From Clostridia bacterium (GTDB lineage Bacteria; Bacillota_A; Clostridia; Monoglobales; Monoglobaceae), in contig JAFSDQ010000015.1 in NCBI GenBank assembly GCA_017436135.1, forward strand, positions 77,517 through 141,516: 64,000 nucleotides of DNA, in the 5' to 3' direction. A program made the position numbers and the translations under genes. The notes beneath the pieces are model-generated. The model ran no database searches. It was given only the letters and a program-made list of their open reading frames with translations, and was not told where the DNA came from. Positions 1-42,655 of the stretch are shown one piece after another; the first letter of the stretch is position 1, and each line of letters starts with the position of its first letter.

Positions 1-251
1 AACATTGCCGGTTCCAGCTTAAGTCTGATTGATTGACTTTGGGGCATATAAATTGCCTCGGTCACATTTACCTCTTCCCCTGTGCTGTCTGTAACCGAAA
101 AGTTTGCGGATTTTGCAGTATGCGGAAGAAGCTGCTTTGGCAAAGCCACGCTTACACTATACTCCTGCATACCCTGACTATAGACTTGCTTAAAGACAGG
201 AGGCCTTAAACAACGGCCGTACATTTGAGACGCTGTCCCAAACGAATAATT
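1..251 (-). CDS. Partial coding frame, Ig-like domain, continues off the left edge
   Basis: On the minus strand an open frame runs from about 251 to the window edge without a stop. It is one register away from the end of the LamG protein that terminates at 190. From about 210 down it reads as a plausible beta-sandwich segment (PPVFKQVYSQGMQEYSVSVA, later ANFSVTDSTGEEVNV), which resembles SbsA/Big-type bacterial Ig-like domains. The only nearby ATG (minus strand, inside the overlap) has no signal peptide after it and no clear ribosome binding site. I therefore infer that this is the displaced C-terminal part of the upstream secreted protein rather than a separate gene. A separate overlapping gene cannot be excluded because the rest lies outside the window. 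Confidence 0.55.
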
Positions 252-2415: not shown

Positions 2416-2457
2416 AATAATTCCTCCTTTAGAAATTATAGATTTTAATCCCTTGCA

Positions 2458-2582
2458 AAATGGCTGAAATGGGCTGCCCCGACCTTCACCTCTGCAGAAC
2501 GGATAAATCCGTTCTATGCCACCTCATCCGTCAGCGGTGAATGAGGTGTACATTTTCCCGAGGCATCCCGTTTCAGCCATTT
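2458..2582. repeat. Structured inverted-repeat element upstream of the LamG gene
   Basis: Terminal arms AAATGGCTGAAA (2458-2469) and TTTCAGCCATTT (2571-2582) are perfect inverted repeats, and pairing extends through a GGG/CCC step. Two further hairpins lie inside: AGAACGGA/TCCGTTCT around 2496-2515 and ACCTCAT/ATGAGGT around 2520-2547. The element sits in the 5' leader of the LamG gene transcribed on the minus strand. It may be a small non-autonomous repeat, since short palindromes of the CACCTCATCCGTCAGC type are common between genes in Clostridia, or a structured leader RNA. I see no known riboswitch signature. Confidence 0.6.
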
Positions 2583-2641
2583 CACAAATACTTAAAATTA
2601 TATATATTTTAATACTTTTTCTTAATTTATCTGCAAATCCT

Positions 2642-4375: not shown

Positions 4376-4389
4376 ATTTTATACCTCCG

Positions 4390-7623: not shown

Positions 7624-7641
7624 TTACTCATGCGCCTCCTT

Positions 7642-9402: not shown

Positions 9403-9464
9403 ATTACTTCCTCCTTATGTATTTGCAATTGCGGGGCAAAAGCCCCACAATCACAAAAGTAAGC

Positions 9465-12400: not shown

Positions 12401-13802
12401 AGATCTGATTTCTTCCAAGCCCCAAATCAAAATTCATACCGAATATATATACACCCTTTTCTTCATCAAAAAGAGCGGGTCTTCCAAGAGGCTCGTTTGC
12501 AGAAATAACAACTCTCTCGCCCTCTGCCGCCTTAAAGGTGATAGGCGCCTTTGCAGTACCGTCATTCTGCGGGGTAAGAACTTCTCTGTATGTACCCTCG
12601 CGCACTATAACAGTATCTCCCGCTACCGCAACAGATGCCGCCTTTGCAAGCGTTTTAAACGGTGACATAGAGCTACCCGAGTTATTGTCGTTTGCCACAT
12701 CATTTTGAGCTACATAGTATGTGTTTCCTTTTATTTCCGCCTCCGCAGGTCCTATAAACTCTTCAAACTTCGCGAGGGCAAAGTTATAAAAACCCTCTTC
12801 TTCAAGTATATCACGAACCGTATACTTATCATCAATTGCAATCAAGCCGTCCTTGTAACCAACGGTTTCACCCGCAAGCTCTGCAAAGAAACGAACAGCC
12901 GCCCAAACTCTGCCCTCATGATTTATTATTACGTTATCAGGACCATCTGTCGGTTGTGACAGTCCCTCTGTAATTTTGCACACACCATTCATCACAACTA
13001 CCTCGTGCGTGTCACTTCTCATAAGAACATAATTCTTTTCGGGAATAACCTCGTGATAATATCCTGTCGCCTTTGCCAAAGTATTGATAGGCAGATATAT
13101 AGATCCGTTAAAGAAGTACGGCAAAAGCTGTGTGTCATTATTATCAAGGTAACGCTTGCCGCCATTTACAACTATAGCAGATGCGTTTTCGTGCATCAGA
13201 ACGGTTGATGTAGTTTCTATTGAGTACCTCTGCACATTCTCGTCGTCAGAAAATTTAGGGATTGGCGCAGTGGACGGAGGCCCCATCGTCAGCTCCTTTT
13301 CAAATCGCAACTCTTTAATGCTTATCCCTTCATCTGAAGCAATGGTAATCTGCTTCTCCCCCCGCCGCTCTACGTATTCACTCAAAGCACCGTAAGCACC
13401 CCATGTTCTGTACTGCGGCTCTTGGTCTTTGCCGAGGTTTTTACCAAATTCCAATTTATATTCTAAATCTGTTCCGTATTCCAGATTAACTGCATTATAA
13501 GTATCTGTGTCGCTGGACAAAACTATATTGCCGCCGCCTGTATATTTAATGGTTACACTTCGGGAGCCATAAGGCAGATAAAATCCCCATGTTGCACTTC
13601 CGCCCGCATCAATTTGAACGCCATTTTGCGTTGCTGTTGCATTATTTGTAAAAATACAGTCCTCTGGGCTTACCAGATGCTCGCTTTCACCCGGATAATA
13701 CCCCGGAGTCCAGACGTATGTTGGTTTGTCTGTCCCTGCAAACGCCGATATTGACGAAAACAGCATAGCCGCCACAAGGATTCCGCATAATATTTTCTTC
13801 AT
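9465..13802 (-). CDS. Secreted right-handed beta-helix protein (pectate-lyase-like), paralog A
   Basis: The 1445-residue product has a signal peptide (MKKILCGILVAAMLFSSISA, cleavage after AFA). An N-terminal beta domain (about 25-190) is followed by a copper-amine-oxidase-N/stalk-like domain (about 205-345; IVVNGGKRYLDNND, YLPINTLAKATGY). A DUF1565-type entry then leads into a right-handed parallel beta-helix (about 358-950; TYYVAQNDVANDNNSGS, SPFKTLAKAASVAVAGDTV, VREGTYREVL, then repeated NNTVYNTGRG-like coils). CBM6-like and other beta domains run to the C-terminus (about 960-1445). In known families this helix fold includes polysaccharide lyases (PL1, PL9) and related hydrolases; the catalytic residues were not identified here. 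The start is supported by AGGAGGT in the 36-bp gap. Its paralog lies immediately upstream. Confidence 0.8.
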   Translation of the reverse strand: MKKILCGILVAAMLFSSISAFAGTDKPTYVWTPGYYPGESEHLVSPEDCIFTNNATATQNGVQIDAGGSATWGFYLPYGSRSVTIKYTGGGNIVLSSDTDTYNAVNLEYGTDLEYKLEFGKNLGKDQEPQYRTWGAYGALSEYVERRGEKQITIASDEGISIKELRFEKELTMGPPSTAPIPKFSDDENVQRYSIETTSTVLMHENASAIVVNGGKRYLDNNDTQLLPYFFNGSIYLPINTLAKATGYYHEVIPEKNYVLMRSDTHEVVVMNGVCKITEGLSQPTDGPDNVIINHEGRVWAAVRFFAELAGETVGYKDGLIAIDDKYTVRDILEEEGFYNFALAKFEEFIGPAEAEIKGNTYYVAQNDVANDNNSGSSMSPFKTLAKAASVAVAGDTVIVREGTYREVLTPQNDGTAKAPITFKAAEGERVVISANEPLGRPALFDEEKGVYIFGMNFDLGLGRNQIFIDDKLQTEARYPDAPGHLTTGKELSNAWGVRADLIKASGDADAFKVGGVEWEKRATELQKKENKATSYETVSTEYESADYDAIVSDMLLDQEDNYWQGGMYVGIFSNGYAMNNGLIESSTKGKLIISDEYRQQRWWWRNWANSLTINKETNDQWNWGMIVGHKNAMNLPGEWVKPQDEDRMYMILPEGADPKTVNVEAKARMLVADLTGRKYVNIEGFETIGGSVVMKDSTMCMLNGMNMRYIAHYTISSDQRNGYIDFPYYNAKEGAPQRGELGIFISGSDNIITNSRIDHSAAAAVYMIGLYTYLENNIMNDCGYMGAYVSGIHADTQAWEHVTVPRGGFAIYNNTVYNTGRGALDFGRNEYYKFLDGPESQVGHGNAPFLACDIAYNDFHDACLLTQDAGAIYTNGTNASIDKSHTTVRNNYVYKTTQKPDGNHYDILIYWDGNAHGYDTFENLSFLTGDTYARMKLFQGVDGVEAYCREWNNQYLGNIELDDTIPVADALADEYFSEERPFFAGAHLDREAPYMNNYRRFENEEYSMKYSAKEAKISEGVTVDAEDGFAKFSNDGQYIEFSDVDFGDSANEMIINFRSLGHWTFDKLEVTVGQSMESGKKYDVEIPQSDAPSNEQANTLRFMIDDTKGKNNVWIKVKDYFSVEIGGISVFNRTRTDKTEEFSNVTYLANYTDRISGAGAQPDFFIADSSLGTKNPYINGVKSTWTGNTVRFANRTIDEDSDYFVLAAGSRDQYLGQLIRVYLCEPTEKFVKPTGEPVAEIRTLNQGFYDVTPIKVPLIKDVKAGTYDIYLDFVYEGKGKTSNMTYFGFIKKGADSSDIASEARYQGGRWDKNISIMNPDRPFEYVRYDRVDALRKLMFALPGTTAGYSNVRTLAQCSKMTINYYVTDEEHAGQPINVRVVDADNNVIATTAIQTAPCEPGVFTEEIAELSNPVPAGTYTVYLDFGGDPNSNKACQLGWFRFEK

Positions 13803-13838
13803 AATCCTACCTCCTGTATATTTAAATTATTACACTGT

Positions 13839-16800
13839 CTATTCAAACCTGAACCAGTTGAGTTGATAGGTCTGTCCTTTATCATTACTGTCAGGGAAGT
13901 CAAAGTACACTCTGTAGTTTCCTGGTGCTACACTTTGGGAAAGCTCTACAAGCTGTCCCCCTGCCGAAGAAGCGCCTGTATTAAACGTTCCTGTGGCAAC
14001 TGTGGTTTCTTCAGAGGTTTCGCTGTTATACGATACCACCCGAACCCCAACATCTGCAGCTGTATCATTTTTACCCATAACTGTATATGCCACTTTTATA
14101 TCAGAGCATTCTTCGTTGATTACATCAACATCGCTGTAACCCACTGTATCTCCGGGCAAAACAAAGGTAAGCTTAAACCTTGCTGTAGTGGTTCTGTCTT
14201 CCAAAGCTGCAACAAACGACGATTCGCTGTCTTTTTTAGTACTGATGGAAGAATCGTACAAACCGCCCTGATAGCGCACTTGAGCTCCTATCTCTGATGT
14301 ATTCTTATCTTTTGAAAGGAATCCGCAATAGAGTATTGTTGATGTTTCGCTTACAGCTGTAGTTTCCTTTCTGAATTCAAGATAAATATCATAGGTACCT
14401 GCCTTTATATACCCGTCGGCATTTGTAACAGGAACCTTTATTGGTGTTATGTCTGACATTTTCTGATTATATACAACAAACTTTGCAACAGGGGTCTTTC
14501 CTGTTTTAACAGGATTATTAAAGCTGTCAGTCGGCTCGCACACATACACATATACAGGCTGCTTACGCAGCTGATCACGAGAGCCCGCTGCCATTACAAA
14601 ATAATCAGAATCATCCGTAATAGTCACATTTGCATATCGAAGAATTGTGTTTTCAAGAGTATTATGAACCGCTGAACAATGAGGATTAGAAGCCGGAATA
14701 TCATTAGATAAAAGCATACTTTTTGTAAGCTTATCTACCACATTGGTTGAATTATGAGGCAAAGCATCCGTATACTGGCTCATATATGTAAAGTACGAAA
14801 ACAGCTCTGCTGAATCCTCCTTTAGCTCTCTTTTATAAACACTCAATCCGCCAATTCGCACAGAGTATAAATCCACAACCTTTAATCTGACATTCTTTTT
14901 CCCGCTTGTAGGATTTATGGTAAATCTGTGGGAACAGGTCTGGTCCCCCTGTCTTGGCTCCTGTTGAGGGAGTGTAATTTTATATGTCTGCCCCTCTGAC
15001 GGGTCGCTGTCAAAGATGTTAAGCTCAAGCTCATCAAAGGTCCAGTTTGCATCACACCGATAGCTTATAACCATTTCATTAGAGCCTGTGCCAAAATCAA
15101 CCTCTGAAAAATCGAGATACTGATTGTTTGCAGTATAAGACACATATCCGTCAGAAGCATCCATAACCACTTCTGCATCAGACGGAGTTGCCTCTGCCGC
15201 TCTGTACTGCATAGAATAGTTGTTTTCTTTAAGCTTGTTATAATTGTTGAGGTAATAATCTTCTCTGCCAAGATACGCCCCTGCAAAGAAAGGTCTGTCC
15301 TCGCTAAAATATTCATCTGCCAAAGCATCTGCAACAGGCTTTGTACTGTCAAGCTCCAACGCTCCAAGCTTATGATTGTTCCAAAGTCTGCTATAAGCTT
15401 CTGCCCCCGGAACACTGGCAGGGGAAATGAGCCTCGGGCCCTTTTCTCCTGTAACAAAAACCAGATTATCGTAGGTATCAAAACCATTTGCACTGCCATC
15501 CCAATAGAGAAGAACCTCATAGGGGTTTGTATATCTTTCGTCTACCGTTTTATAAATATAGTTTCTGCGGAAATCTGTAGCCTTCTTGTCAAAAACAGTG
15601 TTTCTGCCGTGAGCATATACCGTTCCCGCATCCTCTGTCATAAGACACGCATCGTGGAAATCGTTGTACGCAATGTCCATGGGAAGCAAAGGCGCGCTGC
15701 TGTGAGAAATAATGTATGGGTTTGCCTTTACATCATCAAACTCATTTTTGTTGATGCTTACAGCACCTCTACCCACATTATATACCGTATTATTATAAAC
15801 AGAAAGTCCGCCTCTCGGCTTCCCCATAGGCTCGTAAGGAACCGTTTCTATACAAATTCCCGCAACATAAGACCCCATATATCCGCAGTCATTCATTATA
15901 TTGTTCTCAATATAGGCATAGGTGCCTGTGCAGTACACAGCGGCACCTGCACTATGGTCAATTCTTGAATTTACGATTATGTCGTCTGTTCCTCCAAGAT
16001 AAATTCCGTTCTCGCCCCTTTGGGGTGCCCCTGCATTTTTAAAATCAAAGGGAAAATCCAGGTAGCCCTGTTTTGGGTCTGCGTTCAATGTGTAATGAGA
16101 AATATATTTCATATCCATTCCGTTGAGCATACACATTTCACTGTTATTCATAGTTATACCGCCGCCAAATGTGTCAACGCCCTCAATGTTAATATATTTT
16201 TTGTCCGTCAGGTCAATTACACGCTGTCTTGCTTTTGCTTCAACCTTTATATCCTCAGGGTCAATGCCCTCCGGTAAAATCATTTTAAGCGCCTTATTCT
16301 TGACTACCCATTCATAATCAACGGACATGGCGTTTTCGTGACCAATTATCATACCATAATTCCATTGGGAATTACTGCCGTTGCTGATGGAATTGCACCA
16401 ATTATCCCACCAATACATTTTTGTTCTCTCGTTGGAGATAGTCAGCTTTCCGTCTGTGCTGCTTTCGATTTTCCCCGAAAGAACAGCATAGCTGTTGCCG
16501 AATGTGCCTACATAAATTCCACCCTTCCAATAGTCATCCTCATAGCCCAGCAAACAATCTCCCATCATGGTTGTAAGGTCAACTGCATTTGCATCGGTGT
16601 CTACCTTAAAGATGTCCCCTCTTACACCCCATGCCTGGCTTAAATTATCCTTATGGACATTTTCCTCTGTAGGATCGGGAAATCTTGCTTCGCTTTTCAT
16701 TTCTCCATTCACAAAAATCTGGTCTTTGCCTGTTCCCATTGTACCTGTGCCATTATTTATACCACTCATATCAAAGGTATATACTCTTTTTTCCTCATCG

Positions 16801-18341
16801 GTAAGAGTGCCTCCGCTTATCTCTTCTGTGGCAGAAATAACAACCCTCTTGCCCTCTTCTGCCTTGTAGGTTATAGGAGCTCTTTCAGTTCCGCTGTTTG
16901 CAGGAACAAGAGTTTCTCTGTAAGTTCCCTCCTGCAACACAACAGTATCTCCTGCCACCGCAATCTGTGATGCCGCTAAAAGAGTTATAGGTGACGAATA
17001 TTCGCCTGTATTTGAATCCTTACCTACTCCCTCCGGGGCAACATAATAGGTTTTGCCCGAAAGCTTGCTCTCTGCAAAAGGTTCTATTTTTTCAGACATA
17101 TAGGCGTAAAAATCCCCGTCCTCCATAATGTCACGGACAGTATACTTGTCATCAATGGCAACAAGACCGTTTTTATAGTCTACCGTTTCTCCCGCAAGTT
17201 CACCAAAATATCGAACAGCCGCCAGAATTTCTCCCTCTCTGTAAATAAATACATTATCAGGAGCCGCCACAGGCTCTGACAACCCCTCTGCAACCGTACA
17301 ATTACCACCCATAAGCACAACCTGGTGAGAATCACTTCTCATCAAGGCATAACCCTTTTCAGGAATTACCTCGCAGTAATAGCCAAGAGCCTTTGCAAGG
17401 GTGGAAACAGGAAGGTACATAGACCCGTCAAAATTATAAGGCTCTGTTTCGATATTATTGTTGTCAATATATCTTCTTCCGCCGTTTACCAGAATTACAT
17501 TGGCGTCCTCATGTATAATTACCGTAGACATGGTTTCCATTTCGTATTTCTGCTCTGTTTCATTGTCAGAAAATTCAGGAATATAGCTACGGGGAAACGC
17601 TGTGCTTTCTACCGTATAAGGACCCATGGTTATTTCTTTTTCAAAACGCAATTCGTGTATGTATATTTCTTGGTCGGAGGCGATTGTAACCATTTTTTCT
17701 CCACTATGCTCAACCTGCTCCACAAGTACACCGTAAGAACCAAATGTTCTGTATTGAGGGTTGCTTGCTCTCCCCGAATTTACTCCAAATTCGATTCTCT
17801 GTTCTGCTCCGCTCCCCTCGCAGAGCTCAACAGGATTATAAGAAAACTCCTCGGTTGTCAGAGTTATGTTTCCACTTCCTGTGTACTTTATAATAATACT
17901 TCTGGAATTGTAGGGAAGATAAAAGCCCCAGGTCGCACTTTCCCCGGCACAGATTTTTATGCTTCCGTCCTCTTCAGGTACTGCGGTCACACAATCTTGT
18001 GCATTTACAATATGCTCTGTTTCTCCAAACAAATATCCCGGCATATAGCCTTTATATGTATCGGAATTTTTGAATTCTGCAATATATCCGTTTCTCACGC
18101 CGGGATACTTTGCATCAAAAGCTTCACGGAATGCAGCAATGGTTGAATATTCTGCAGCCGCTTTATCTTCCTCTGCTTTGTTTTCATTCCAATAGCTTTT
18201 TGCCTTTTCGTCCGCCTTTCCTAATGCCCAGTCGTCAGCATATTCTGTATACAAGGAGGGTTTTGTCCGTCCTGCCATAACGGAAACCGAGGACAACATC
18301 ATAAATGCAGCAATTATACCGCAAAAAATTCTTTTTTTCAT
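13839..18341 (-). CDS. Secreted right-handed beta-helix protein (pectate-lyase-like), paralog B
   Basis: The 1500-residue product is the first gene of the surface cluster. It has a signal peptide (MKKRIFCGIIAAFMMLSSVS, cleavage after VMA) and then a 65-residue charged insert (ADDWALGKADEKAKSYWNEN) absent from paralog A. After that come the same modules in the same order: N-terminal beta domain, stalk-like domain (VNGGRRYIDNNN, YLPVSTLAKALGY), DUF1565/beta-helix (KTYYVAPEGVGKDSNTG, GDTVVLQEGTYRE), and C-terminal CBM-like domains ending QLNWFRFE. Long stretches align with paralog A almost residue by residue, so this is a tandem duplication. Extracellular binding or cleavage of a plant or host glycan is inferred. 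A regulator gene of the DeoR family is divergently transcribed from the 240-bp upstream gap, which also holds palindromes. Confidence 0.8.
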   Translation of the reverse strand: MKKRIFCGIIAAFMMLSSVSVMAGRTKPSLYTEYADDWALGKADEKAKSYWNENKAEEDKAAAEYSTIAAFREAFDAKYPGVRNGYIAEFKNSDTYKGYMPGYLFGETEHIVNAQDCVTAVPEEDGSIKICAGESATWGFYLPYNSRSIIIKYTGSGNITLTTEEFSYNPVELCEGSGAEQRIEFGVNSGRASNPQYRTFGSYGVLVEQVEHSGEKMVTIASDQEIYIHELRFEKEITMGPYTVESTAFPRSYIPEFSDNETEQKYEMETMSTVIIHEDANVILVNGGRRYIDNNNIETEPYNFDGSMYLPVSTLAKALGYYCEVIPEKGYALMRSDSHQVVLMGGNCTVAEGLSEPVAAPDNVFIYREGEILAAVRYFGELAGETVDYKNGLVAIDDKYTVRDIMEDGDFYAYMSEKIEPFAESKLSGKTYYVAPEGVGKDSNTGEYSSPITLLAASQIAVAGDTVVLQEGTYRETLVPANSGTERAPITYKAEEGKRVVISATEEISGGTLTDEEKRVYTFDMSGINNGTGTMGTGKDQIFVNGEMKSEARFPDPTEENVHKDNLSQAWGVRGDIFKVDTDANAVDLTTMMGDCLLGYEDDYWKGGIYVGTFGNSYAVLSGKIESSTDGKLTISNERTKMYWWDNWCNSISNGSNSQWNYGMIIGHENAMSVDYEWVVKNKALKMILPEGIDPEDIKVEAKARQRVIDLTDKKYINIEGVDTFGGGITMNNSEMCMLNGMDMKYISHYTLNADPKQGYLDFPFDFKNAGAPQRGENGIYLGGTDDIIVNSRIDHSAGAAVYCTGTYAYIENNIMNDCGYMGSYVAGICIETVPYEPMGKPRGGLSVYNNTVYNVGRGAVSINKNEFDDVKANPYIISHSSAPLLPMDIAYNDFHDACLMTEDAGTVYAHGRNTVFDKKATDFRRNYIYKTVDERYTNPYEVLLYWDGSANGFDTYDNLVFVTGEKGPRLISPASVPGAEAYSRLWNNHKLGALELDSTKPVADALADEYFSEDRPFFAGAYLGREDYYLNNYNKLKENNYSMQYRAAEATPSDAEVVMDASDGYVSYTANNQYLDFSEVDFGTGSNEMVISYRCDANWTFDELELNIFDSDPSEGQTYKITLPQQEPRQGDQTCSHRFTINPTSGKKNVRLKVVDLYSVRIGGLSVYKRELKEDSAELFSYFTYMSQYTDALPHNSTNVVDKLTKSMLLSNDIPASNPHCSAVHNTLENTILRYANVTITDDSDYFVMAAGSRDQLRKQPVYVYVCEPTDSFNNPVKTGKTPVAKFVVYNQKMSDITPIKVPVTNADGYIKAGTYDIYLEFRKETTAVSETSTILYCGFLSKDKNTSEIGAQVRYQGGLYDSSISTKKDSESSFVAALEDRTTTARFKLTFVLPGDTVGYSDVDVINEECSDIKVAYTVMGKNDTAADVGVRVVSYNSETSEETTVATGTFNTGASSAGGQLVELSQSVAPGNYRVYFDFPDSNDKGQTYQLNWFRFE

Positions 18342-33592: not shown

Positions 33593-33636
33593 AAAACTAA
33601 AATAACTCCGAAAATTTTCGGAGTTATTTTAGTTTT
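33593..33636. terminator. Perfect 44-bp palindromic terminator after the capsid module
   Basis: AAAACTAAAATAACTCCGAA and its exact reverse complement form a 22-bp stem with A and T runs at both ends. It lies just beyond the last virion-module gene and upstream of the HlyD operon. It should terminate the minus-strand capsid transcript and insulate it from the export operon. Confidence 0.88.
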
Positions 33637-33640
33637 AAAA

Positions 33641-34843
33641 TCAATAGCCTAACAGGATTTTTCGGGTTTCTGCCTTTATTTTGTCATTTTTCAGCTGCAC
33701 TCCTTCGGTTTCTCCCTCTAACAAAGAGCGATAATATTCCTCATAAATGCTCTTTTGATAGTTGTCGTGCCTTATGCTGTCATTTTCCAAAATTCTGTTT
33801 GCCAAATCCACAGGATTGAAAATCTCGCTCCAATAATTATCTCGCTCTTGAGTGTCATACTTCTGCTGATTGAATTTTTCGCTCCAGCCTCTTTCGTATC
33901 TCTCCTGCTCTTTAGCTCTTTCTTCACTGTCCCGCTCTGTCACTGATTTTGCAGAATAATTGGCGTTTTCTGCAAGCTGATTATTTGCAGCCACCGCATT
34001 ATCGTAGGTCTTGTCATACACATTTAAAATCTTGTCTATAAGATCCATATCTCCACGATAGCTGTCGTAATACCTTTGATATGCCTGCTCTGCAAGCTGG
34101 GGAATAACATCTGAAATCTGCTTTGCATAATATTGGTTTGCAAGGGCACCTGCTGTCACACCTGCAGAATTTGTGTATCCCCCTGTAAGAGCCGAATAAC
34201 TTGCCATTGCATCTCTGCTTGCTCTGTCGGATTCCTGCATATATTTTGCTCTGTAGGCTTTATATACAGGGTCATCATTGGGGTCGTAGGAAAATTCCTT
34301 GCGGTTTTTCAGCCCATTGATAATTTCTTCCATCACAGGCATCCAGTCAGACTCGTACTCCTGCGCCAATTTATCAGGGGTTTCTATTCCCATGGTATCA
34401 GCATATTTTTCAACAAGGGAGTTTACATCGTCAGCCCACGCCCACGCTTTTCCCTCATTGTCGATATACAGGGTATTGAGAGGCACGCCACCTATGGATA
34501 CAGTATCATTTCCATAGGTCAGGGCATCTGCCCCCAATCCATATTTCCCCGCTGCCGAGCCATAGGCATCGCTTACCCTGACAACAGGGTTTCTGCTGTC
34601 CTTATAGAAGCTTGTGACGCTTTTTTGTATTTCAGCTTCTGGGGCATAAGTTATACCCGCATCTGAATCGTAATAGGAAGGCTTCATAAAATCCTTGCCG
34701 TTTAGAGTAACGTTTCCTGTCACATCATTAAATCCTATGGACTTATCAGAAAATCCCATTTTGTTCAAGGTCGCCCTTATTCCCACTGCGCCGTCTTTTA
34801 CGGGGATATCTTTTTTCTTTTCTGATTCTATAGTATTAGCCAT
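33641..34843 (-). CDS. Phage-type structural protein, coiled-coil, unknown
   Basis: The 400-residue protein is not recognised as a named family. The N-terminal 160 residues contain short beta-repeat-like segments (SIGFNDVTGNVTLNGKDF, SIGGVPLNTLYIDNEGKAW). The rest is strongly helical and charged (RASRDAMASYSALTGGYTNS, then long E/K/Q/R-rich stretches such as DSEERAKEQERYERGW), compatible with an internal virion or tail-tube protein. The Ala/Gly/Ser-rich SALTGGYTNSAGVTAGALAN segment recalls phage internal or ejection proteins. It has no signal peptide. It is the last gene of the virion module, 23 bp after the gp10-like gene, and is followed by a strong terminator. Confidence 0.6.
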   Translation of the reverse strand: MANTIESEKKKDIPVKDGAVGIRATLNKMGFSDKSIGFNDVTGNVTLNGKDFMKPSYYDSDAGITYAPEAEIQKSVTSFYKDSRNPVVRVSDAYGSAAGKYGLGADALTYGNDTVSIGGVPLNTLYIDNEGKAWAWADDVNSLVEKYADTMGIETPDKLAQEYESDWMPVMEEIINGLKNRKEFSYDPNDDPVYKAYRAKYMQESDRASRDAMASYSALTGGYTNSAGVTAGALANQYYAKQISDVIPQLAEQAYQRYYDSYRGDMDLIDKILNVYDKTYDNAVAANNQLAENANYSAKSVTERDSEERAKEQERYERGWSEKFNQQKYDTQERDNYWSEIFNPVDLANRILENDSIRHDNYQKSIYEEYYRSLLEGETEGVQLKNDKIKAETRKILLGY

Positions 34844-34866
34844 AAAATCCTCCTTTCTTCTCGCGT

Positions 34867-36525
34867 TTAATATGTTCTTCCTCCGTTATGGGAAGTAATC
34901 TCAATATCATGAATTACCACCTTGCCGCAGCCCTCAACCATCACGCGAAAGCTGTTGCATTTACCAAACCTCACAGGGACACAATGTGTGGAAAAGCCAC
35001 TGTGGGATATTTCTCCGTATTTGATAAAATCTCCTCCGTCAAAGGAAAGATACACATTTACAGAGGAATTTTCCTCCATATCCATTCGAAGCCATATACA
35101 GGAGAGGCCTTTGTTTTCTATCATATCGTAGGTAAATCTCTTTGATACAACACACCAGGAGGTAGGCTCATCCCCTCCGTTCATTCTCCACATTTCTCCA
35201 TCAGCTATGCCGTAAAGACTGCCGTTATAGGAACAAAATCCTTCAAATACCGTGTCGTCCTCTCTTACCCAGATGCCTGTATCGGGAGTGTACACAAGAA
35301 CATCTGTTTTTCCGTCTTTTCCTTGAGCAGAACAATAATAATGCCTGCCGTCAGAGCCGGAAACACAAGACGTATATTCCCCTTTAAGCTGGGGAGCTAT
35401 TCCAAATGGTTCGCCTCCGCTGTATCCTTTGAAGCCGTCGTTTGACAGATAATAAAGAACACCGCCTATTTCGCAAATGCTTCTTCCGTCAATGCAACCC
35501 CCTGCCGTTTGCTTGGGCATAGCAAAATTTACCGGAGCATCTCCGTAGATATGGTGAATACACTCTCTTTTAAATGCAACAACCGCTGTGCGATAGCTGC
35601 ATATACCTGTGAATTCTCCCCCTGTACCTACCATTCCGTACCAGCTGTCGTCACCCAGACCCTGATAGGAGTAAAAGCTTGTGCAATCTCCAAGTCTTGA
35701 TGCGTATATACATTCACCCGAGGTGGCTGTTCCCCACAGACGATTGTTATGGACACAAATGTTGTCCATATCGGGGACAGAAACCTTTATTGTGACTGTA
35801 CCGCTTTCTGTACCATTTGTAAATTCAGCTCTCTGCCCTTTTTTGTTATACATTAAAAGGGTTATTTTGTTTGTGCTTACCGAGTCTACCACCATGCTGA
35901 CAATATCATTTTCTGAAGCGTAATCCTTTCTGCCCGACACCGTTTTTGTATTATTTTTTGTGTTCTGACAGCCTGATATAACAATACTGTCACCTACAGA
36001 AAAGTTTTTGGAAAAATCAACATTACTTGCAGAAATATACGAAGTATATGTATCCGTGGTATTGTTGTGGGAGGAATAAAAATTAAGATTTTTTACCTGC
36101 ATAATCTTCTCCATAGAGGTCAGAGAGTCCGATATCTCCCCTGTTTCAGGGGAGGGGAGATAATCATAGTAAACCTTGTCAGGAAATATGCAAATTTTGC
36201 CGTTAAAATCAGCCACTGCCTTTTTGCCCTCTGTCAGCTCTCCTTTTATTTTTGTTCCCTTGTAATAAAAATATTTTCCTGCCACCCCTGTAAAGGCTGT
36301 CAGTTCACCCCCTGTATATTCAGGAGCACAAAGGGAGCAAGCTCCAGGCGCTGATGCAATGTATTTTCTCGCCTCTCTCGGCATGAGAGAGGGAATTGCA
36401 TCTCCTGACATATTAGTCATTTCTGTAAGGGACGAGTCAGCTATTTTATCTCTTCTGTCAAGCCCTGCAAACACCTTCAGTTGAGTCCTTGAGTTGCTTT
36501 TTGCCTGAAAATATGGTAATGCCAT
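34867..36525 (-). CDS. Phage tail/DNA-stabilisation-like protein (gp10-type, putative)
   Basis: The 552-residue protein is beta-rich, with repeated Gly-Tyr/Trp strand motifs spaced as in a beta-propeller (NICVHNNRLWGTATSGECIY, SYRTAVVAFKRECIHHIYGD, IGGVLYYLSNDGFKGYSGG, YNGSLYGIADGEMWRMNGG). Its start, with an F.GLDRRDKIADSSLTEMTN segment, resembles podovirus packaged-DNA stabilisation/tail-hub proteins. That assignment rests on overall look and gene order, not on a diagnostic motif. It lies 22 bp after the connector-like gene. Confidence 0.55.
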   Translation of the reverse strand: MALPYFQAKSNSRTQLKVFAGLDRRDKIADSSLTEMTNMSGDAIPSLMPREARKYIASAPGACSLCAPEYTGGELTAFTGVAGKYFYYKGTKIKGELTEGKKAVADFNGKICIFPDKVYYDYLPSPETGEISDSLTSMEKIMQVKNLNFYSSHNNTTDTYTSYISASNVDFSKNFSVGDSIVISGCQNTKNNTKTVSGRKDYASENDIVSMVVDSVSTNKITLLMYNKKGQRAEFTNGTESGTVTIKVSVPDMDNICVHNNRLWGTATSGECIYASRLGDCTSFYSYQGLGDDSWYGMVGTGGEFTGICSYRTAVVAFKRECIHHIYGDAPVNFAMPKQTAGGCIDGRSICEIGGVLYYLSNDGFKGYSGGEPFGIAPQLKGEYTSCVSGSDGRHYYCSAQGKDGKTDVLVYTPDTGIWVREDDTVFEGFCSYNGSLYGIADGEMWRMNGGDEPTSWCVVSKRFTYDMIENKGLSCIWLRMDMEENSSVNVYLSFDGGDFIKYGEISHSGFSTHCVPVRFGKCNSFRVMVEGCGKVVIHDIEITSHNGGRTY

Positions 36526-36547
36526 CTATATACACCCCCTCTCCTTT

Positions 36548-37330
36548 CTATACACAGCTATAGTTTCTGAAGTTTGCTTTTGTAGTCATGGGTCTGCGGC
36601 CGCCGTACTCCCTCATCAGCTCCTCATACAGGAAGTTATATTGTGTCATGTGGGCATTATAACTTGTGTAATCGTGCTGATATAGAGCGCATTTGGCAAG
36701 AATATATTCTATGTACATAGTATCGTAGGGGGCTTCATCAATTTCCGTAACATCATCTATTACCCGCCTGATAGCGAGAGGGGCCTCTGTTTGTGCATTC
36801 AACACCTCACGGTCCAGAATAATTTTATCATCTCCCACTTCCATTACATGCACAGCTTCTGCCTTTTTCCAGTCAGGGGCTTCCTGAATATTTGAAAGAG
36901 TTGCAATTTCTATTGTGTCACCTGTAATAAAGGGGGATTCGGTAATTTCTATCGTGTCTGTTCCTGTGTTAAATTCCCCCACAATCTCGGGATTTCTTAC
37001 AGGCTTTGGCAAAACCAGATAAACCACCCTGAATTTTTGTTTTATTCCCGTTTCCCGGGGGGCGCAAAAATTGTCTGCAAAGCTGCGAAAATCGTATTTA
37101 TTAAACAGTTGATTTCCCACATATACCAGCTCTACCCTTTCAAAGGGAATATCATCAGGAAGAACAAGCTCTCCGCAGCCGTCAACCTCTGTTTCTATTA
37201 CACCATAAATTTTTATAATATTCCGACGCAAGCTTGCCGTTACCTCATCACACCAGCTAATCTTTTCCTCAAGGGTGTATGGGTTGGGGCATAGGGCGTC
37301 GGCTCTCTCTATTGCCCTTAATATCTCCAC
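36548..37330 (-). CDS. Phage head-completion/connector-like protein (putative)
   Basis: The 260-residue protein begins with a helical segment typical of phage head-tail connector proteins (AIERADALCPNPYTLEEKIS WCDEVTASLRR, written in two parts). A beta-rich middle portion follows (TIEITESPFITGDTIEIATL), then a C-terminal helical part (MYIEYILAKCALYQHDYTSY). N-terminal helices of this kind pack around the portal in head-completion proteins of tailed phages. It lies 7 bp after the 79-residue gene. Assignment is by pattern and position. Confidence 0.55.
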   Translation of the reverse strand: MEILRAIERADALCPNPYTLEEKISWCDEVTASLRRNIIKIYGVIETEVDGCGELVLPDDIPFERVELVYVGNQLFNKYDFRSFADNFCAPRETGIKQKFRVVYLVLPKPVRNPEIVGEFNTGTDTIEITESPFITGDTIEIATLSNIQEAPDWKKAEAVHVMEVGDDKIILDREVLNAQTEAPLAIRRVIDDVTEIDEAPYDTMYIEYILAKCALYQHDYTSYNAHMTQYNFLYEELMREYGGRRPMTTKANFRNYSCV

Positions 37331-37337
37331 GTTGCAC

Positions 37338-37577
37338 CTATCCTTTCAGGCTTTCCATATACTTTTGGGCAGCAAGCTCCTGTAGCCTGCTTCTCTCCAA
37401 TACAAGAGCAACGCATCTTGGAACCATAACCTGAACGCCTCTTTGAATCTGATAATTTGTACCGTTTACCGTAACAGTAAGGTCATCCTTGTACTTTGCA
37501 TTATCCTTAATAAGCATTACAGGAACCGCCTCATTATAGAAAGCCTCTGTGTTTGGTTTCTTTGCTTTTGTCGCCAT
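37338..37577 (-). CDS. Small phage-module protein
   Basis: The 79-residue protein contains a compact core (LTVTVNGTNYQIQRGVQVMV PRCVALVLERS in two parts), where NGxxYxIxRG.V.VP resembles small proteins found next to capsid genes in many Clostridia phages. It is probably a head-decoration or structural accessory protein. Its position directly after the major capsid gene supports this. No characterised family was recognised. Confidence 0.6.
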   Translation of the reverse strand: MATKAKKPNTEAFYNEAVPVMLIKDNAKYKDDLTVTVNGTNYQIQRGVQVMVPRCVALVLERSRLQELAAQKYMESLKG

Positions 37578-37642
37578 TTTATATCTCCTTTCCTTGGGGC
37601 TGTCCCCAAATTTGGGGGACAGCCCATACTATAAATCAGTTT

Positions 37643-38881
37643 TTAATAACTGCAGGTTGTTTCTACACGAACAAGAAATTCAGGTGAGAGAATTTCTGCA
37701 GTCTGTGTCGCCTTCCAGCCAACTGTACTTCTCTGGTCAAGAGGGTCGCCTGTACCGGCACTGCCCTTTTGCTTGAGAATAGTTTCAAGACCGCCGCCGT
37801 TAATATTGGTTACACCATAAGCATTCTGTCCTACAAATAATGTAGAATAGATATTTCTGCCCTGTGCGCCTGCGCCTGCAGGATAAATTACGCAACCGCT
37901 TATGATTGAGGCATCAGGAGCCTCCTCCACTGTTATTGTTGCACTTCCCGCAACACCTGCCGCAGCAATTGAAATCTTGTAGTCAAAGCCGTTAATCTGA
38001 ATGCTTCTGCCCGAAAGAGCGTCAGCATCAGCTGCAGACAGCTCCTCCTTGATTGTAATTGTGCTGCCTGAAACAGAAGCAACTGTCAAGGTTCTTGCAT
38101 TGCCTGTTTCAACTGTTTCTGCATTTCGGAGATTTTCTGCGGAGAAGATTTTTGCTTCTGTAGATTCAACAAATACAACTCCGTGAATTTTACCGATTGC
38201 ACCCTTATACCAATCCTCTGGGTCAACATTCTGCTTTACTGCCTTCCATTCGGGGTCGTTTGTAAGGTCGTTTGCAACGTCAGGGTGAATAATTGCCACA
38301 TAACAGCCATCCTTAAAGGGGGTTGCGTTATTTCTCTTAAGGGTTGCAACAGCTCTCTTTACTGCCGCAACAGAAAGATAGTCGTTGTCCTCATAGTTTG
38401 CAAGACCGCCTACCAGCAAGGCTCTGTCTGCCTTGCCGTTACCATACTGAACATTTGTACCTGCGTTAATCTTTTCGCGTATAACTGTGTCCAGAGTACG
38501 GCCTGCCTGGTCGCCAAGAACAGTCTGTGTTTCGTTGATTATAGCATCAACAGAGGATAATGTAAGCATATCAGAAAGTGTTACATAATCACCATACTGT
38601 TCAACTGTAGATTCAACTGTTGTTACGTTAAGGGAATTACCCGTGGGGGTTACACCCTCTGTAAGAGGAACAAGCGCCTTGGGAAGAGGACTGAACTTTC
38701 TGAATTCTATAGTCTTTCCGCTTCCTGCAGGAATCGGCTTCTGCTGACCAAACTGTGCATGCACAAGCTTGGGAGTAGCAAAGCGGATAAGCGCCTTGTC
38801 ATAATAGGTTTTCATTTCGGGAGTAAGATTGTTTCCCCCGTTGTTTGTAGCAGTTGTCTGGGTATTGTAGTTTATACTCAT
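37643..38881 (-). CDS. N4-gp56-family major capsid protein
   Basis: The 412-residue protein has the features of this HK97-fold capsid family. These are the N-terminal TPEMKTYYDKALIRFATPKL and the conserved GKTIEFRKFSPLPKALVPLT (family motif 'F.ky.pL.~a..pLtEG'). Then follow a strand-rich VESTVEQYGDYVTLSDML, VAIIHPDVANDLTNDPEWKA (conserved 'iHP.v..dL..d..w'), the GAIGKIHGVVFVEST segment, and a C-terminal GAGAQGRNIYSTLFVGQNAY block. It would self-assemble into the virion shell. Length and motif order are intact with no frameshift. Confidence 0.88.
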   Translation of the reverse strand: MSINYNTQTTATNNGGNNLTPEMKTYYDKALIRFATPKLVHAQFGQQKPIPAGSGKTIEFRKFSPLPKALVPLTEGVTPTGNSLNVTTVESTVEQYGDYVTLSDMLTLSSVDAIINETQTVLGDQAGRTLDTVIREKINAGTNVQYGNGKADRALLVGGLANYEDNDYLSVAAVKRAVATLKRNNATPFKDGCYVAIIHPDVANDLTNDPEWKAVKQNVDPEDWYKGAIGKIHGVVFVESTEAKIFSAENLRNAETVETGNARTLTVASVSGSTITIKEELSAADADALSGRSIQINGFDYKISIAAAGVAGSATITVEEAPDASIISGCVIYPAGAGAQGRNIYSTLFVGQNAYGVTNINGGGLETILKQKGSAGTGDPLDQRSTVGWKATQTAEILSPEFLVRVETTCSY

Positions 38882-38938
38882 ATAAAATCTTCCTTTCTTT
38901 TTGTAATACTTTGTTTCTTTTGCATATTACTGCGTAAT

Positions 38939-39415
38939 TTAGAAGCTTATCTTTTCGCCGTTGCGGGCTCTTTCGATAATTGCATCTATTTCCTTGTCAG
39001 ATAAATCCTTGGGATTTTTCTTCACAACAGCAGGGCTGTTCTTGCCTGCACCGTTTTCAGCAATACGATTTCTGCGCCCTTCATATCTTGCAAGGGCTTC
39101 CTGTACAGCCTCTGTTATAAGCTCTTCAGCATGAACAAGAACAAATGCCTCTTCAAGAGTCAATCCCTTTTCCAAAACATAAGCTTTAAATGCGGGATTT
39201 TTCATTTCCTCTTCCATATTGAAGTCGGGCTTCTTTTTCAGAAAATCACGATGTTGCTGTGCGATTTCCTCGACTCTGCTCTCGATAAAGGCTTCTCTTT
39301 CCTCATCTGCCATGGGAAGCTTACCGCCTTTTTCCTTTGCGTCGCCTTTGCCGCCCTTTACCAGGGTGTTCATAGTTGGCTCTGTTTGTTTTTTTGTTGT
39401 GTAAAAATTTAACAT
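38939..39415 (-). CDS. Scaffold-like phage protein
   Basis: The product is 158 residues from ATG 39415, chosen because AGAGGAG precedes it at about 6 bases; an upstream in-frame ATG adds seven residues without a site. It is highly charged and helical (EEREAFIESRVEEIAQQHRD, ELITEAVQEALARYEGRRNR) with a short basic tail (KNPKDLSDKEIDAIIERARN). This composition and its position immediately before the major capsid gene fit a capsid scaffolding protein. A small hairpin GCTTCAT/ATGAAGC at 39430-39446 lies just before the ribosome binding site. Confidence 0.6.
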   Translation of the reverse strand: MLNFYTTKKQTEPTMNTLVKGGKGDAKEKGGKLPMADEEREAFIESRVEEIAQQHRDFLKKKPDFNMEEEMKNPAFKAYVLEKGLTLEEAFVLVHAEELITEAVQEALARYEGRRNRIAENGAGKNSPAVVKKNPKDLSDKEIDAIIERARNGEKISF

Positions 39416-39455
39416 TTTTTCTCCTCTCTGCTTCATTTTATGAAGCTCATGTTTT

Positions 39456-39527
39456 CTATGCGGATTCCCGGGAATTTATTGATTTATCCTCCGCACAATA
39501 AGATAATACACCCCACAAAAGTGTCAT
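39456..39527 (-). CDS. Possible small peptide (23 residues) upstream of the scaffold gene
   Basis: An ATG at 39527 has a strong ribosome binding site (AGGGGAGG) and is followed by 23 codons (MTLLWGVLSYCAEDKSINSR...) ending at 39456, 41 bases before the scaffold gene. It could be a leader peptide or a remnant of a longer gene at the front of the capsid module. Its coding status cannot be proved from sequence. Confidence 0.35.
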   Translation of the reverse strand: MTLLWGVLSYCAEDKSINSRESA

Positions 39528-39540
39528 AACGTGCCTCCCC

Positions 39541-41035: not shown

Positions 41036-42655
41036 ATGACTATTGGCGAAAAAATTACACGGCTTCGTACAGATGCGAATATGTCCCAGGAGCAACTTGC
41101 GGAAAGGGTTTCTGTTTCCCGTCAGTCTGTTTCAAAATGGGAAATGGATCAGACCCTTCCCCAGATTGACAATGTTCTTCAGCTGTGCGAAATATTCAGC
41201 ATTTCTGCAGATGAGCTTTTAAAGGATGATATAAACATAAAAACCACAGCTCCCCCCTCGGTCCAAAATAAATATTTCGGCACAGACGGCTTCAGAGGAG
41301 AGGCAAATAAAACTCTGACCTCTATGCAGGCTTATAAAGTGGGAAGATTTTTAGGCTGGTACTACTCCTCTCAATTGTCGGGTTGCAGTAAGGTTGGTTA
41401 TCGTCCCCGTATAGTTGTAGGAAAGGACACCAGACGTTCCAGCTATATGCTTGAATATTCAATCGTTGCAGGAATAACAGCCTCGGGGGCAGACGCACAC
41501 ATGCTGCATGTTACCACCACCCCCAGCGTATCTTATGTAACAAGACAGGACGAGTTTGATTGCGGAATTATGATTACCGCTTCTCACAATCCCTTCTTCG
41601 ACAATGGTATTAAAGTTATAAATAGATACGGTGAAAAACTTGATGACCGCACAACCTCATTGATTGAAGCTTATATAGACGGCAATCTTGCCCCGCTTGG
41701 TATAAGCGGTGATGATTTACCTCTCGCCCACAGAGAAAAAATAGGCTGTATAGTAGACTATGTTTCGGGCAGAAACAGATACCTTGGGTACTTGATTTCC
41801 CTTGCATCACACTCCTATAAGCACCTTAAAATAGGGCTTGACTGCGCCAATGGTGCATCCTGGATGCTGGCAAGCTCTCTTTTTGGTGCTCTCGGGGCAA
41901 AAACCGAGGTTATCGGTGCAGAACCTGACGGACTTAATATAAACACAAAGTGCGGGTCAACTCATATTGAAAAGCTGTGCAGGCTTGTTAAAGAAAAACA
42001 TCTTGATATGGGTTTTGCCTTCGATGGCGATGCCGACCGCTGTATTGCCGTAGACGAAAACGGAAACATAGTTGACGGGGACAAGATAATGTATATTTTA
42101 AGCAAGCGTCTTCTGGACCGTGGGATGCTCAATGATAATACTCTGGTTACAACAGTTATGTCCAACAGCGGACTTTTTTCTTCCCTTGAAAAAATCGGTG
42201 TTCGTTGCCAGCAAACAACTGTAGGCGACAGGTTTGTCTATGAGTGTATGAACGAAAACGATTACTCTCTCGGCGGGGAGCAATCAGGGCATATTATTAT
42301 GAAAAAATACGCAACAACAGGCGACGGGCTTCTTACCGCTATTATGATAACAGAGGAGCTTTGTGACAAAAAAACTACCCTCTCTAAATTAGCCGAGCCT
42401 GTACACCTGTATCCCCAGTACACAAAAAATCTTAAGGTTGAGAATAAATCAGCAGTTATGGAGGATTCAGAGATTTTGAAGGTGTTTGAAGATGTTAACT
42501 CCGCCCTTGGGGGAAAAGGCAGAGCTCTTCTGCGTCAAAGCGGAACAGAGCCTGTTATCCGTATAATGATAGAGTGTGAGGACATCAGCAAATGCGAAGA
42601 GTACGCAAACAAAATTGCAGATAAAATTACAGAGGGAGGCTATTGCTGTGAATAG
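41036..42655 (+). CDS. Fusion of Xre-type HTH domain and phosphoglucosamine mutase-like enzyme
   Basis: The 539-residue protein joins two modules. Residues 1-67 are a Cro/CI-type helix-turn-helix (IGEKITRLRTDANMSQEQLA, RQSVSKWEMDQTLPQID). From about 80 on it is a complete alpha-D-phosphohexomutase: the substrate loop GTDGFRGEANKTL, the phosphoserine motif ITASHNP with S183, Mg-binding DGDADR (D330, D332, D334), the sugar-specificity loop GGEQSGHI, and the phosphate-binding RQSGTEPVIRIMIE. GTDGxRGxAN and GEQSGH favour GlmM-type phosphoglucosamine mutase, which makes GlcN-1-P for peptidoglycan. It may bind DNA and sense amino-sugar phosphates; that is inference. It overlaps the next gene by 8 bases. 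Confidence 0.88.
   Translation: MTIGEKITRLRTDANMSQEQLAERVSVSRQSVSKWEMDQTLPQIDNVLQLCEIFSISADELLKDDINIKTTAPPSVQNKYFGTDGFRGEANKTLTSMQAYKVGRFLGWYYSSQLSGCSKVGYRPRIVVGKDTRRSSYMLEYSIVAGITASGADAHMLHVTTTPSVSYVTRQDEFDCGIMITASHNPFFDNGIKVINRYGEKLDDRTTSLIEAYIDGNLAPLGISGDDLPLAHREKIGCIVDYVSGRNRYLGYLISLASHSYKHLKIGLDCANGASWMLASSLFGALGAKTEVIGAEPDGLNINTKCGSTHIEKLCRLVKEKHLDMGFAFDGDADRCIAVDENGNIVDGDKIMYILSKRLLDRGMLNDNTLVTTVMSNSGLFSSLEKIGVRCQQTTVGDRFVYECMNENDYSLGGEQSGHIIMKKYATTGDGLLTAIMITEELCDKKTTLSKLAEPVHLYPQYTKNLKVENKSAVMEDSEILKVFEDVNSALGGKGRALLRQSGTEPVIRIMIECEDISKCEEYANKIADKITEGGYCCE

What the first reader, a model, noticed from the sequence alone, without database searches (positions are those of the whole stretch)
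33593..39527. Isolated virion-structure module without packaging, integration or lysis genes
Six intact, tightly spaced minus-strand genes encode scaffold-like, N4-gp56-type capsid, small, connector-like, gp10-like and coiled-coil proteins. They are bounded by an exporter operon on one side and galK on the other, with a dedicated perfect terminator. No terminase, portal, integrase, holin or lysin gene lies between the host genes. All frames are open with good ribosome binding sites, unlike a decaying prophage. The module may be a domesticated capsid (a gene-transfer, toxin-delivery or cargo compartment) or the structural part of a satellite that borrows a portal and terminase.
Basis: partly seen in the sequence, partly recalled or inferred. 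Interest (0 to 1): 0.82.

Follow-up and report, generated by a model that had tools for sequence, protein, structure and literature searches.

The report
Scattered gene-transfer-agent-like capsid genes
Six phage-type shell and tail genes in a bacterium related to gut Clostridia appear to be one piece of a virus-derived particle whose other parts, in its relatives, are kept elsewhere in the chromosome under the same switch, which suggests an inherited machine for moving DNA, and perhaps a toxin, between cells.

Summary
The six-gene block is real and intact, but it is not a lone capsid. In the order of related genomes (51 searched) a matching capsid occurs in 24. All 24 also carry a matching P22-type portal and 22 a matching terminase, mostly in a separate operon (about 270 kb away in the one single-contig chromosome). 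That operon also encodes a CI/LexA-like (S24) repressor and a late-activator-like protein. Capsid, portal and terminase distances follow the host gene uvrB, and median dN/dS is low. A composite promoter (GGCAC-N5-GGCAC, 11-12 bases, -10 box) precedes the block in the window and recurs before portal operons, holin/amidase cassettes, fibre-like genes, a DnaD-like loader and, in three of the window's nearest kin, MuF-RNase or barstar genes. In genomes without the capsid it is at background. Best reading: a dispersed, co-regulated, vertically inherited gene-transfer-agent-like element, related to but on a separate branch from the Faecalibacterium FpGTA published in 2026. DNA packaging and transfer are inferred, and the window's own genome is not held, so its portal and terminase were not seen.

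The parts
39503..39535 (-). composite promoter element GGCAC-N5-GACAC-N12-TATTAT (10-bp direct repeat plus -10 box)
   Evidence: the only match in the 64-kb window, 0.01 expected; same element before related head, portal and lysis operons
39456..39498 (-). hairpin at the predicted 5' end of the capsid-operon mRNA
   Evidence: stem starts within 8 bases in 17 of 18 head leaders, mean MFE -10.9 against -5.4 in mononucleotide shuffles; the window's own hairpin alone is not significant (12.5% of shuffles as stable)
38939..39436 (-). gene A, 165 aa as called (158 aa from the likelier ATG at 39415); scaffold by position between portal and capsid in related clusters
   Evidence: phrog_13908, unknown function, 2.1e-14; order in L020, L022, L024
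37643..38881 (-). gene B, N4-gp56 family major capsid protein, 412 aa
   Evidence: TIGR04387 261.5 bits, phrog_1357 3.4e-80
37338..37577 (-). gene C, 79-aa conserved protein of unknown role
   Evidence: phrog_15239, unknown function, 6.2e-22; found in 26 of 26 related loci
36548..37330 (-). gene D, 260 aa, head-tail adaptor by position (inferred)
   Evidence: phrog_12105, unknown function; 24 of 26 related loci
34867..36525 (-). gene E, 552 aa, tail nozzle/hub protein of the P22 gp10 - T7 gp12 kind
   Evidence: phrog_511 3.2e-44; model pLDDT 87, podovirus tail proteins as best PDB matches
33641..34843 (-). gene F, 400 aa, mixed N-terminal part and long coiled coil; internal or needle-like virion protein (inferred)
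   Evidence: model pLDDT 76.6, no PDB match at E 0.001 or better; relatives in L293, L045, L028
33591..33638 (-). 20-pair hairpin after gene F, terminator-like

Best explanation
The block is the head-and-nozzle operon of a dispersed gene-transfer-agent-like element descended from a small P22-like podovirus and inherited vertically in this order of Clostridia. Proposed working: an S24 (CI/LexA-like) repressor encoded in the packaging operon holds the system off. On DNA damage it would be cleaved, which frees the divergent operon with a late-activator-like protein and the terminase. The activator binds the GGCAC direct repeats and switches on the distant operons together: scaffold-capsid-adaptor-nozzle (this window), tail protein-portal, fibres and holin/amidase. 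Scaffold and capsid build a head, the terminase fills it with host DNA, and cells lyse. Because the parts lie at distant sites, no single packaged fragment could carry the whole set. Shown, in relatives: gene content, co-occurrence, descent with a host gene, selection, shared promoter element, regulator domains. Inferred: particle formation, DNA packaging, transfer, repressor cleavage (its residues were not checked), the wiring from activator to repeat, and that the window's own genome holds the other operons.
For: Co-occurrence in 51 genomes: capsid in 24, strong portal (E<1e-100) in all 24 plus G018, strong terminase (E<1e-190) in 22 of 24 plus G018; Fisher p 1e-13 and 4e-11. Packaging locus: tail protein, portal, opposite-strand repressor and terminase in 13 of 13 fetched loci. 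Domains: HTH_3 plus Peptidase_S24 in the 2 repressors tested; phrog_36/248 (and 2198 in one) for the 2 activator-like proteins tested; terminase PF03237 and portal PF16510 in the one locus tested. Protein distances track UvrB: capsid r=0.92, portal 0.935, terminase 0.92, 0 of 5000 permutations. Median dN/dS: capsid 0.057, portal 0.065, terminase 0.075. Promoter: 17 of 20 head regions and 9 of 13 tail-protein/portal regions against 0.06 and 0.03 in shuffles, 0 of 13 before the activator. Genome-wide 67 sites against 8 control in 18 genomes, 3 against 6 in 26 capsid-less genomes; 56 of the 67 lie before phage-type genes. Collinear with a Faecalibacterium cluster whose capsid occurs in 30 of 31 genomes of that genus and that fits the published FpGTA I (PMC12946183), reported to make 40-nm particles with about 9 kb of DNA.
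Against: The window's own genome is not held, so its portal and terminase are assumed from relatives with 72-85% capsid identity. No particle, packaged DNA or transfer was observed. Some genomes show loss or damage: G013 has only a weaker terminase match, G031 none and a partial portal, G012's terminase and G011's portal each carry one in-frame stop. Of 24 capsid-bearing genomes 4 have no holin match, and the motif was seen before the first-listed holin in 12 of the other 20 (one of them weak). Three of 20 head regions lack the strict motif; G028 gave no site, and none of G001's 3 sites lies before a phage-type gene. The activator assignment is weak (phrog_36, E 5e-8 and 2e-7; no curated family reached). 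A DnaD-like loader in the regulon of 4 genomes departs from a replication-free GTA.
Confidence: 0.7

Rival explanations
1. A toxin-delivering particle: the capsid carries a MuF-linked RNase rather than, or besides, useful DNA, and kills cells that lack the barstar, in the manner proposed for PBSX-like particles or MuF-toxin phages.
For: In G044, G045 and G046 the same promoter precedes MuF-fragment plus ribonuclease proteins (4 sites) and a barstar gene (1 site). PF00545 scores 37.3 and 42.3 bits (cut-off 24) in the two G045 copies, and PF01337 76.7 and 70.8 bits (cut-off 23.4) in two barstars of G046. The two G045 copies are intact and 63% identical. Jamet et al. 2017 (PMC5576092; [quoted passage not shown]
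Against: Only 3 of the 18 genomes scanned by motif show it. The MuF part is a fragment below Pfam's cut-off (26.2 and 21.1 against 29.6). Only G045's copies look intact; the G046 copy has an early stop and the G044 copy looks shortened (by eye). Portal and terminase are under strong selection, which suggests DNA packaging matters.
Confidence: 0.15
2. An ordinary decaying prophage remnant.
For: Four of 26 related loci keep a portal beside the block, and a few genomes have broken or missing parts.
Against: Median dN/dS 0.06-0.2 for the six genes, distances that follow uvrB over an order, shared regulon, no viral contig in the 27-row clade of the tree (L058 was not put in).
Confidence: 0.04
3. 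The structural part of a satellite that borrows portal and terminase from a helper phage.
For: No packaging genes within the window.
Against: A cognate portal lies in the same genome in 24 of 24 cases, among host-type genes in the 13 regions read; distances follow a host gene. No mobility gene was noticed beside the block, but none was searched for by profile.
Confidence: 0.03
4. A DNA-free protein compartment (encapsulin-like use of the shell).
For: Only head and nozzle genes lie in this locus.
Against: Co-occurring terminase, portal and holin/amidase, several under the same promoter family, have no obvious role in a sealed compartment.
Confidence: 0.04

Closest known systems
FpGTA of Faecalibacterium (Borodovich et al. 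2026, PMC12946183; abstract, sections 9, 10, 26 and passages read)
   Same: N4-gp56 capsid (44% identity to L293), C, D, E, F, portal and terminase homologues; podovirus type; genes at more than one chromosomal site; no replication genes reported by its authors
   Different: In FpGTA I terminase, portal and capsid share one 10.5-kb operon; here terminase/portal and capsid are mostly split. The capsid tree puts the two on separate well-supported branches. The paper's main text had no hit for 'promoter', 'Monoglob' or 'MuF'.
Alphaproteobacterial GTAs such as RcGTA (recalled; passages of PMC12946183)
   Same: phage-derived, inherited, genes dispersed, under host control
   Different: another capsid and tail lineage (recalled); transfer shown there, not here
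PBSX of Bacillus subtilis (recalled; discussion of PMC12946183)
   Same: SOS-type control (recalled), particle genes fixed in the chromosome
   Different: does not inject its DNA and acts like a tailocin (PMC12946183 discussion); gene kinship not compared here
MuF polymorphic toxins of temperate phages (PMC5576092, abstract and passages)
   Same: MuF sequence plus toxin domain; immunity gene nearby in the window's kin (L283, L288)
   Different: described there as exclusive to temperate phages and prophages; here under the promoter of a dispersed element
Bacillus phages Page, Pony, Palmer and Paenibacillus phage API480
   Same: capsid of the same family, 36-37.5% identity; unannotated human faecal phage records reach 48.5%
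   Different: whole phages with records of about 40-45 kb

Membership tests
gene transfer agent (GTA) | phage-derived head, portal and terminase genes, intact | tested here: met
   in relatives: capsid 24 of 51, portal 24 of those 24, terminase 22 of 24, with a few broken copies; not testable for the window's own genome
gene transfer agent (GTA) | vertical inheritance in the host lineage under purifying selection | tested here: met
gene transfer agent (GTA) | no autonomous replication or integration; genes too dispersed to be packaged together | tested here: inconclusive
   dispersal met (270 kb in G015; capsid 16 kb from portal and 19 kb from terminase in G030); integrase not searched by profile; DnaD-like loader in the regulon of 4 genomes
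gene transfer agent (GTA) | particles contain random host DNA | not testable with these tools
   needs induced culture and sequencing of packaged DNA
gene transfer agent (GTA) | transfer of DNA to recipient cells | not testable with these tools
   needs a transfer assay
N4-gp56 major capsid family | TIGR04387 above curated cut-off | tested here: met
   261.5 bits against 60
FpGTA lineage | capsid groups with Faecalibacterium FpGTA in a tree | tested here: not met
   separate well-supported branches; that L293 is FpGTA I is inferred
phage satellite | lacks own packaging genes, borrows a helper's | tested here: not met
   in relatives a cognate portal in 24 of 24 genomes with the capsid; not testable for the window's genome
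MuF polymorphic toxin | MuF domain plus C-terminal toxin plus immunity gene | tested here: inconclusive
   toxin and immunity domains above cut-off, MuF fragment below; in relatives, not in the window

The most novel reading that the evidence does not exclude
A gene transfer agent gated by kinship: one promoter family drives a scattered set of head, portal, lysis, fibre, helicase-loader and RNase/barstar genes, so that particles deliver host DNA together with an RNase, and only kin with the matching barstar survive to use the DNA. The DnaD-like loader would amplify DNA for packaging.
Probability: 0.13. Interest if true: 0.93.

Novelty: new variant of a known kind. Interest (0 to 1): 0.8.

Why it matters
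GTAs are known from few lineages, and the FpGTA authors call theirs the first podovirus-like one and the second in Gram-positive bacteria after PBSX (PMC12946183, discussion). This would be another, separately branching podovirus-like system, seen in 24 of 51 sampled genomes of one order of Clostridia, split into several operons whose shared promoter lets the regulon be read from sequence. It gives a direct test of how a phage is taken apart and rewired into a host function, and at least one carrier, Ructibacterium gallinarum DSM 107454, is a named strain.

Tried and rejected
A sigma-54 reading of TGGCAC...TTGCAC was considered and dropped: the spacing is one base short of the consensus I recall, and a TATAAT-type box follows at a near-fixed distance. 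The L024 tail-fibre protein as query gave no clear third operon, and its likeness to the L282 protein is limited to 12 residues at E 0.084, so the fibre label of that operon rests on L278 (phrog_32680; 34% over 143 residues with L282). The fold search with gene F gave nothing at E 0.001. Inverted repeats near the repressor were listed but no operator was defined. My first regular expression for the repeat used a wrong spacing and missed nearly all sites; corrected. The relaxed motif counts include at least two false picks (P_L178, P_L181), so only strict counts are quoted. The leader alignment was badly chosen (one 6-base row, one wrong stretch) and was not used. My simple gene caller preferred antisense frames in several capsid genes; repaired by scoring all frames.

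The strict motif was drawn up from the same upstream regions it is counted in; the genome-wide scans are the fairer test. Of 24 capsid genomes 17 were scanned by motif, plus G018, which has portal and terminase but no capsid match; G011-G014, G025, G031 and G043 were not. Some families used to label the 67 sites were themselves found through such sites (head and portal were not). dN/dS pairs share ancestry and use the Nei-Gojobori method. Of 34 holin matches, 30 were checked for the motif and 4 were not. Literature: the nine searches in one open-licence library listed no paper on this element; preprints and most subscription journals were not covered.
Full report
What is there. Six intact minus-strand frames lie between galK and an HlyD/ABC/MacB export operon. 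Gene B is an N4-gp56 major capsid protein (261.5 bits against a cut-off of 60). Gene E matches phrog_511, and its predicted model (mean pLDDT 87) finds podovirus tail proteins first, among them P22 gp10 (TM 0.56 by query, 0.64 by target) and T7 gp12. Genes A, C and D match families of unknown function as their best hits, and F has one weak match; A is a scaffold and D an adaptor by position. F is a coiled-coil protein without a fold match. No portal or terminase relative was found in the 64 kb; the only hit of that search was an HTH stretch inside another gene.

The same block elsewhere. A scan of bacterial genomes gave 57 loci with a related capsid. In 26 loci of the close clade (L001-L025 and L186) genes A to F were found in 25, 26, 26, 24, 24 and 21. 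The misses in L001, L004, L019 and L020 lie at or near contig ends; L024 and L025 appear to lack F. Of these 26, 22 show no portal or terminase in the fetched flanks, 14 of them with at least 7.5 kb on both sides and 8 with shorter flanks; L020, L022, L024 and L025 have a portal just upstream of A but no terminase. Flanking genes are shared within sub-clades, but none of the 26 shared two or more gene families with the window, so the cassette sits in a different place there.

The missing parts are elsewhere in the same genomes. Ructibacterium gallinarum (G001) holds one matching terminase and, about 2 kb from it, one portal, on another contig than its capsid. Over the order of that genome, 51 genomes were searched. 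The capsid was found in 24, a portal at E below 1e-100 in those 24 plus G018, and a terminase at E below 1e-190 in 22 of the 24 plus G018 (misses G013, with a weaker match, and G031). Fisher tests give p of 1e-13 and 4e-11. In the single-contig genome G015 (2,757,678 bases) the capsid lies at 1,908,802-1,910,037 and the terminase at 1,637,770-1,639,164, about 270 kb apart; in G030 the capsid lies 16 kb from the portal and 19 kb from the terminase on one contig. In G012 and G013 (L025, L024) the portal is beside the head genes and the terminase match is on another contig.

The packaging operon. Fourteen regions were fetched, thirteen of them around portals. All thirteen hold a tail-like protein of about 290 aa, the portal, a repressor on the opposite strand and the terminase; further small genes lie before the terminase. 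The two repressors tested have an HTH and a Peptidase_S24 domain, as CI and LexA-type repressors do; cleavage residues were not checked. The activator-like protein has weak matches to phage transcription regulators (phrog_36 in both tested, phrog_248 and 2198) and fainter ones to sigma factors and ArpU, all far below curated cut-offs. Neighbours look like ordinary host genes by eye; no profile search for integrases was made.

Descent and selection. Pairwise protein distances of capsid, portal and terminase follow those of UvrB (r = 0.92, 0.935 and 0.92 for 19, 19 and 18 genomes; 0 of 5000 permutations). The capsid is about as conserved as UvrB (window against G015: 80% for both). Median dN/dS over unsaturated pairs: A 0.20, B 0.057, C 0.14, D 0.10, E 0.136, F 0.13, tail-like protein 0.116, portal 0.065, terminase 0.075, repressor 0.087, activator-like 0.14; one small gene has 0.38. 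Single pairs reach 0.52 for A, 0.63 for C and 0.70 for the small gene. In a tree of 91 capsids the window's clade of 27 rows has 100/99 support and holds no viral contig. L058, a 6.7-kb contig filed as viral with a capsid 79% identical, was not put in the tree; it carries B-F and a host-type gene. The nearest of 17 portal relatives found in the viral collection is 47% identical.

A shared switch. Before gene A lies GGCACGTTATGACACTTTTGTGGGGTGTATTAT (39503-39535, minus), the only match of its pattern in the window against 0.01 expected. The strict pattern is found in 17 of 20 head-operon upstream regions, the window's included (0.06 in shuffles), in 9 of 13 tail-protein/portal regions (0.03), and in none of 13 regions before the activator (six head loci with a portal upstream or too little upstream sequence were set aside, and the pattern was drawn up from these regions). 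In 18 genomes with the system the pattern gave 67 sites against 8 for the reversed pattern (G028 had none); in 26 genomes without the capsid, 3 against 6. The stretches behind all 67 sites were fetched. Within 600 bases downstream lie head genes (10 sites), the tail-protein/portal operon (13), holin/amidase cassettes (12), a 102-aa coiled-coil protein (8), a DnaD-like loader (4), fibre-like genes (4), MuF-RNase (4) and barstar (1); 11 fit none, close to background, among them all 3 of G001. Holin genes of this family occur in 20 of 24 capsid-bearing genomes and 3 of 27 others. The motif stands before the first-listed holin locus in 12 of those 20 (that of G025 weak) and in G018, and before none of the 9 others checked: 7 second copies and 2 holins of capsid-less genomes. 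The capsid operon's leader also starts with a hairpin: stem within 8 bases of the start in 17 of 18, mean energy -10.9 against -5.4 in mononucleotide shuffles, 12 of 18 at or below 5% of shuffles. Of 9 tail-protein/portal leaders 1 reaches that level.

Cargo hint. In three of the window's nearest relatives (G044-G046) the same promoter precedes proteins with a MuF fragment (26.2 and 21.1 bits in the two G045 copies, below the 29.6 cut-off) fused to a ribonuclease domain (37.3 and 42.3 bits, cut-off 24), and a barstar gene. Only the G045 copies look intact. Jamet et al. (PMC5576092; abstract and passages read) describe MuF toxins in temperate phages and propose that they ride in the head. The window has one promoter site and it stands before gene A; the window was not searched by profile for MuF or barstar genes.

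Relation to known systems. Borodovich et al. 2026 (PMC12946183; abstract, sections 9, 10, 26 and passages read) report FpGTA in Faecalibacterium: two operons, particles of about 40 nm, about 9 kb of DNA, no identifiable tails. A cluster in the genome behind L051, strain APC923/61-1 (L293), holds terminase, portal, capsid, C, D, E and F homologues in line, and its capsid occurs in 30 of 31 genomes of the genus; that L293 is FpGTA I is my inference from content, size and ubiquity. The same genome has a second cluster of the kind (L051). The window's system uses the same gene kinds but branches apart and is split differently.

Judgement. A dispersed, co-regulated, vertically kept phage-derived system is well supported for the relatives (about 0.9). 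That it packages and transfers host DNA is the best-supported use (about 0.7) but untested. For the window itself one operon and its promoter are seen; the rest is inferred from kin.

Noticed in passing
window 41036-42655: One frame joins a Cro/CI-type HTH to a complete phosphoglucomutase/phosphomannomutase, which looks like an unusual fusion.
   Followed up: no
L028, L045 and loci with like gene sizes (such as L041, L042, L044, L046, L048-L050): Clusters of about 12-13 kb with terminase, portal, capsid and tail genes between host-like genes in other Clostridia (profiles for L045; tblastn for L028 and L045; the rest by gene sizes). Capsids identical to three such loci sit in contigs filed as viral. 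They may be further unsplit GTA-like elements.
   Followed up: partly
L026:9068-13299: Another A-B-E block (capsid 50% to the window) with no portal or terminase evident from gene sizes, outside the window's supported clade: perhaps an independent split. Not searched further.
   Followed up: no
L058 (IMG/VR): A contig filed as viral carries B-F beside a host-type gene (capsid 79% identical); it looks like a chromosome fragment.
   Followed up: no
G029:C18 about 1599-7433: A second, more phage-like set of capsid, portal and terminase in a genome that also has the split system.
   Followed up: no
L270, L273; sites in G015, G016, G019, G021: A DnaD-like helicase loader behind the same promoter; a possible link between replication and packaging.
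   Followed up: partly
L045 and L293 capsid N-termini: They start with residues like LNLQLFA or KIDLQRFA, which I recall as a Prp protease site, together with a 106-aa peptidase-like gene in L045; both seem absent from the window's block by eye.
   Followed up: no
window 190-18341: A row of large proteins, by eye secreted, all on the minus strand.
   Followed up: no
L283 and L271: A gene that looks by eye like an M16-type peptidase lies between the two MuF-RNase genes in G045 and after an unassigned promoter site in G015.
   Followed up: no
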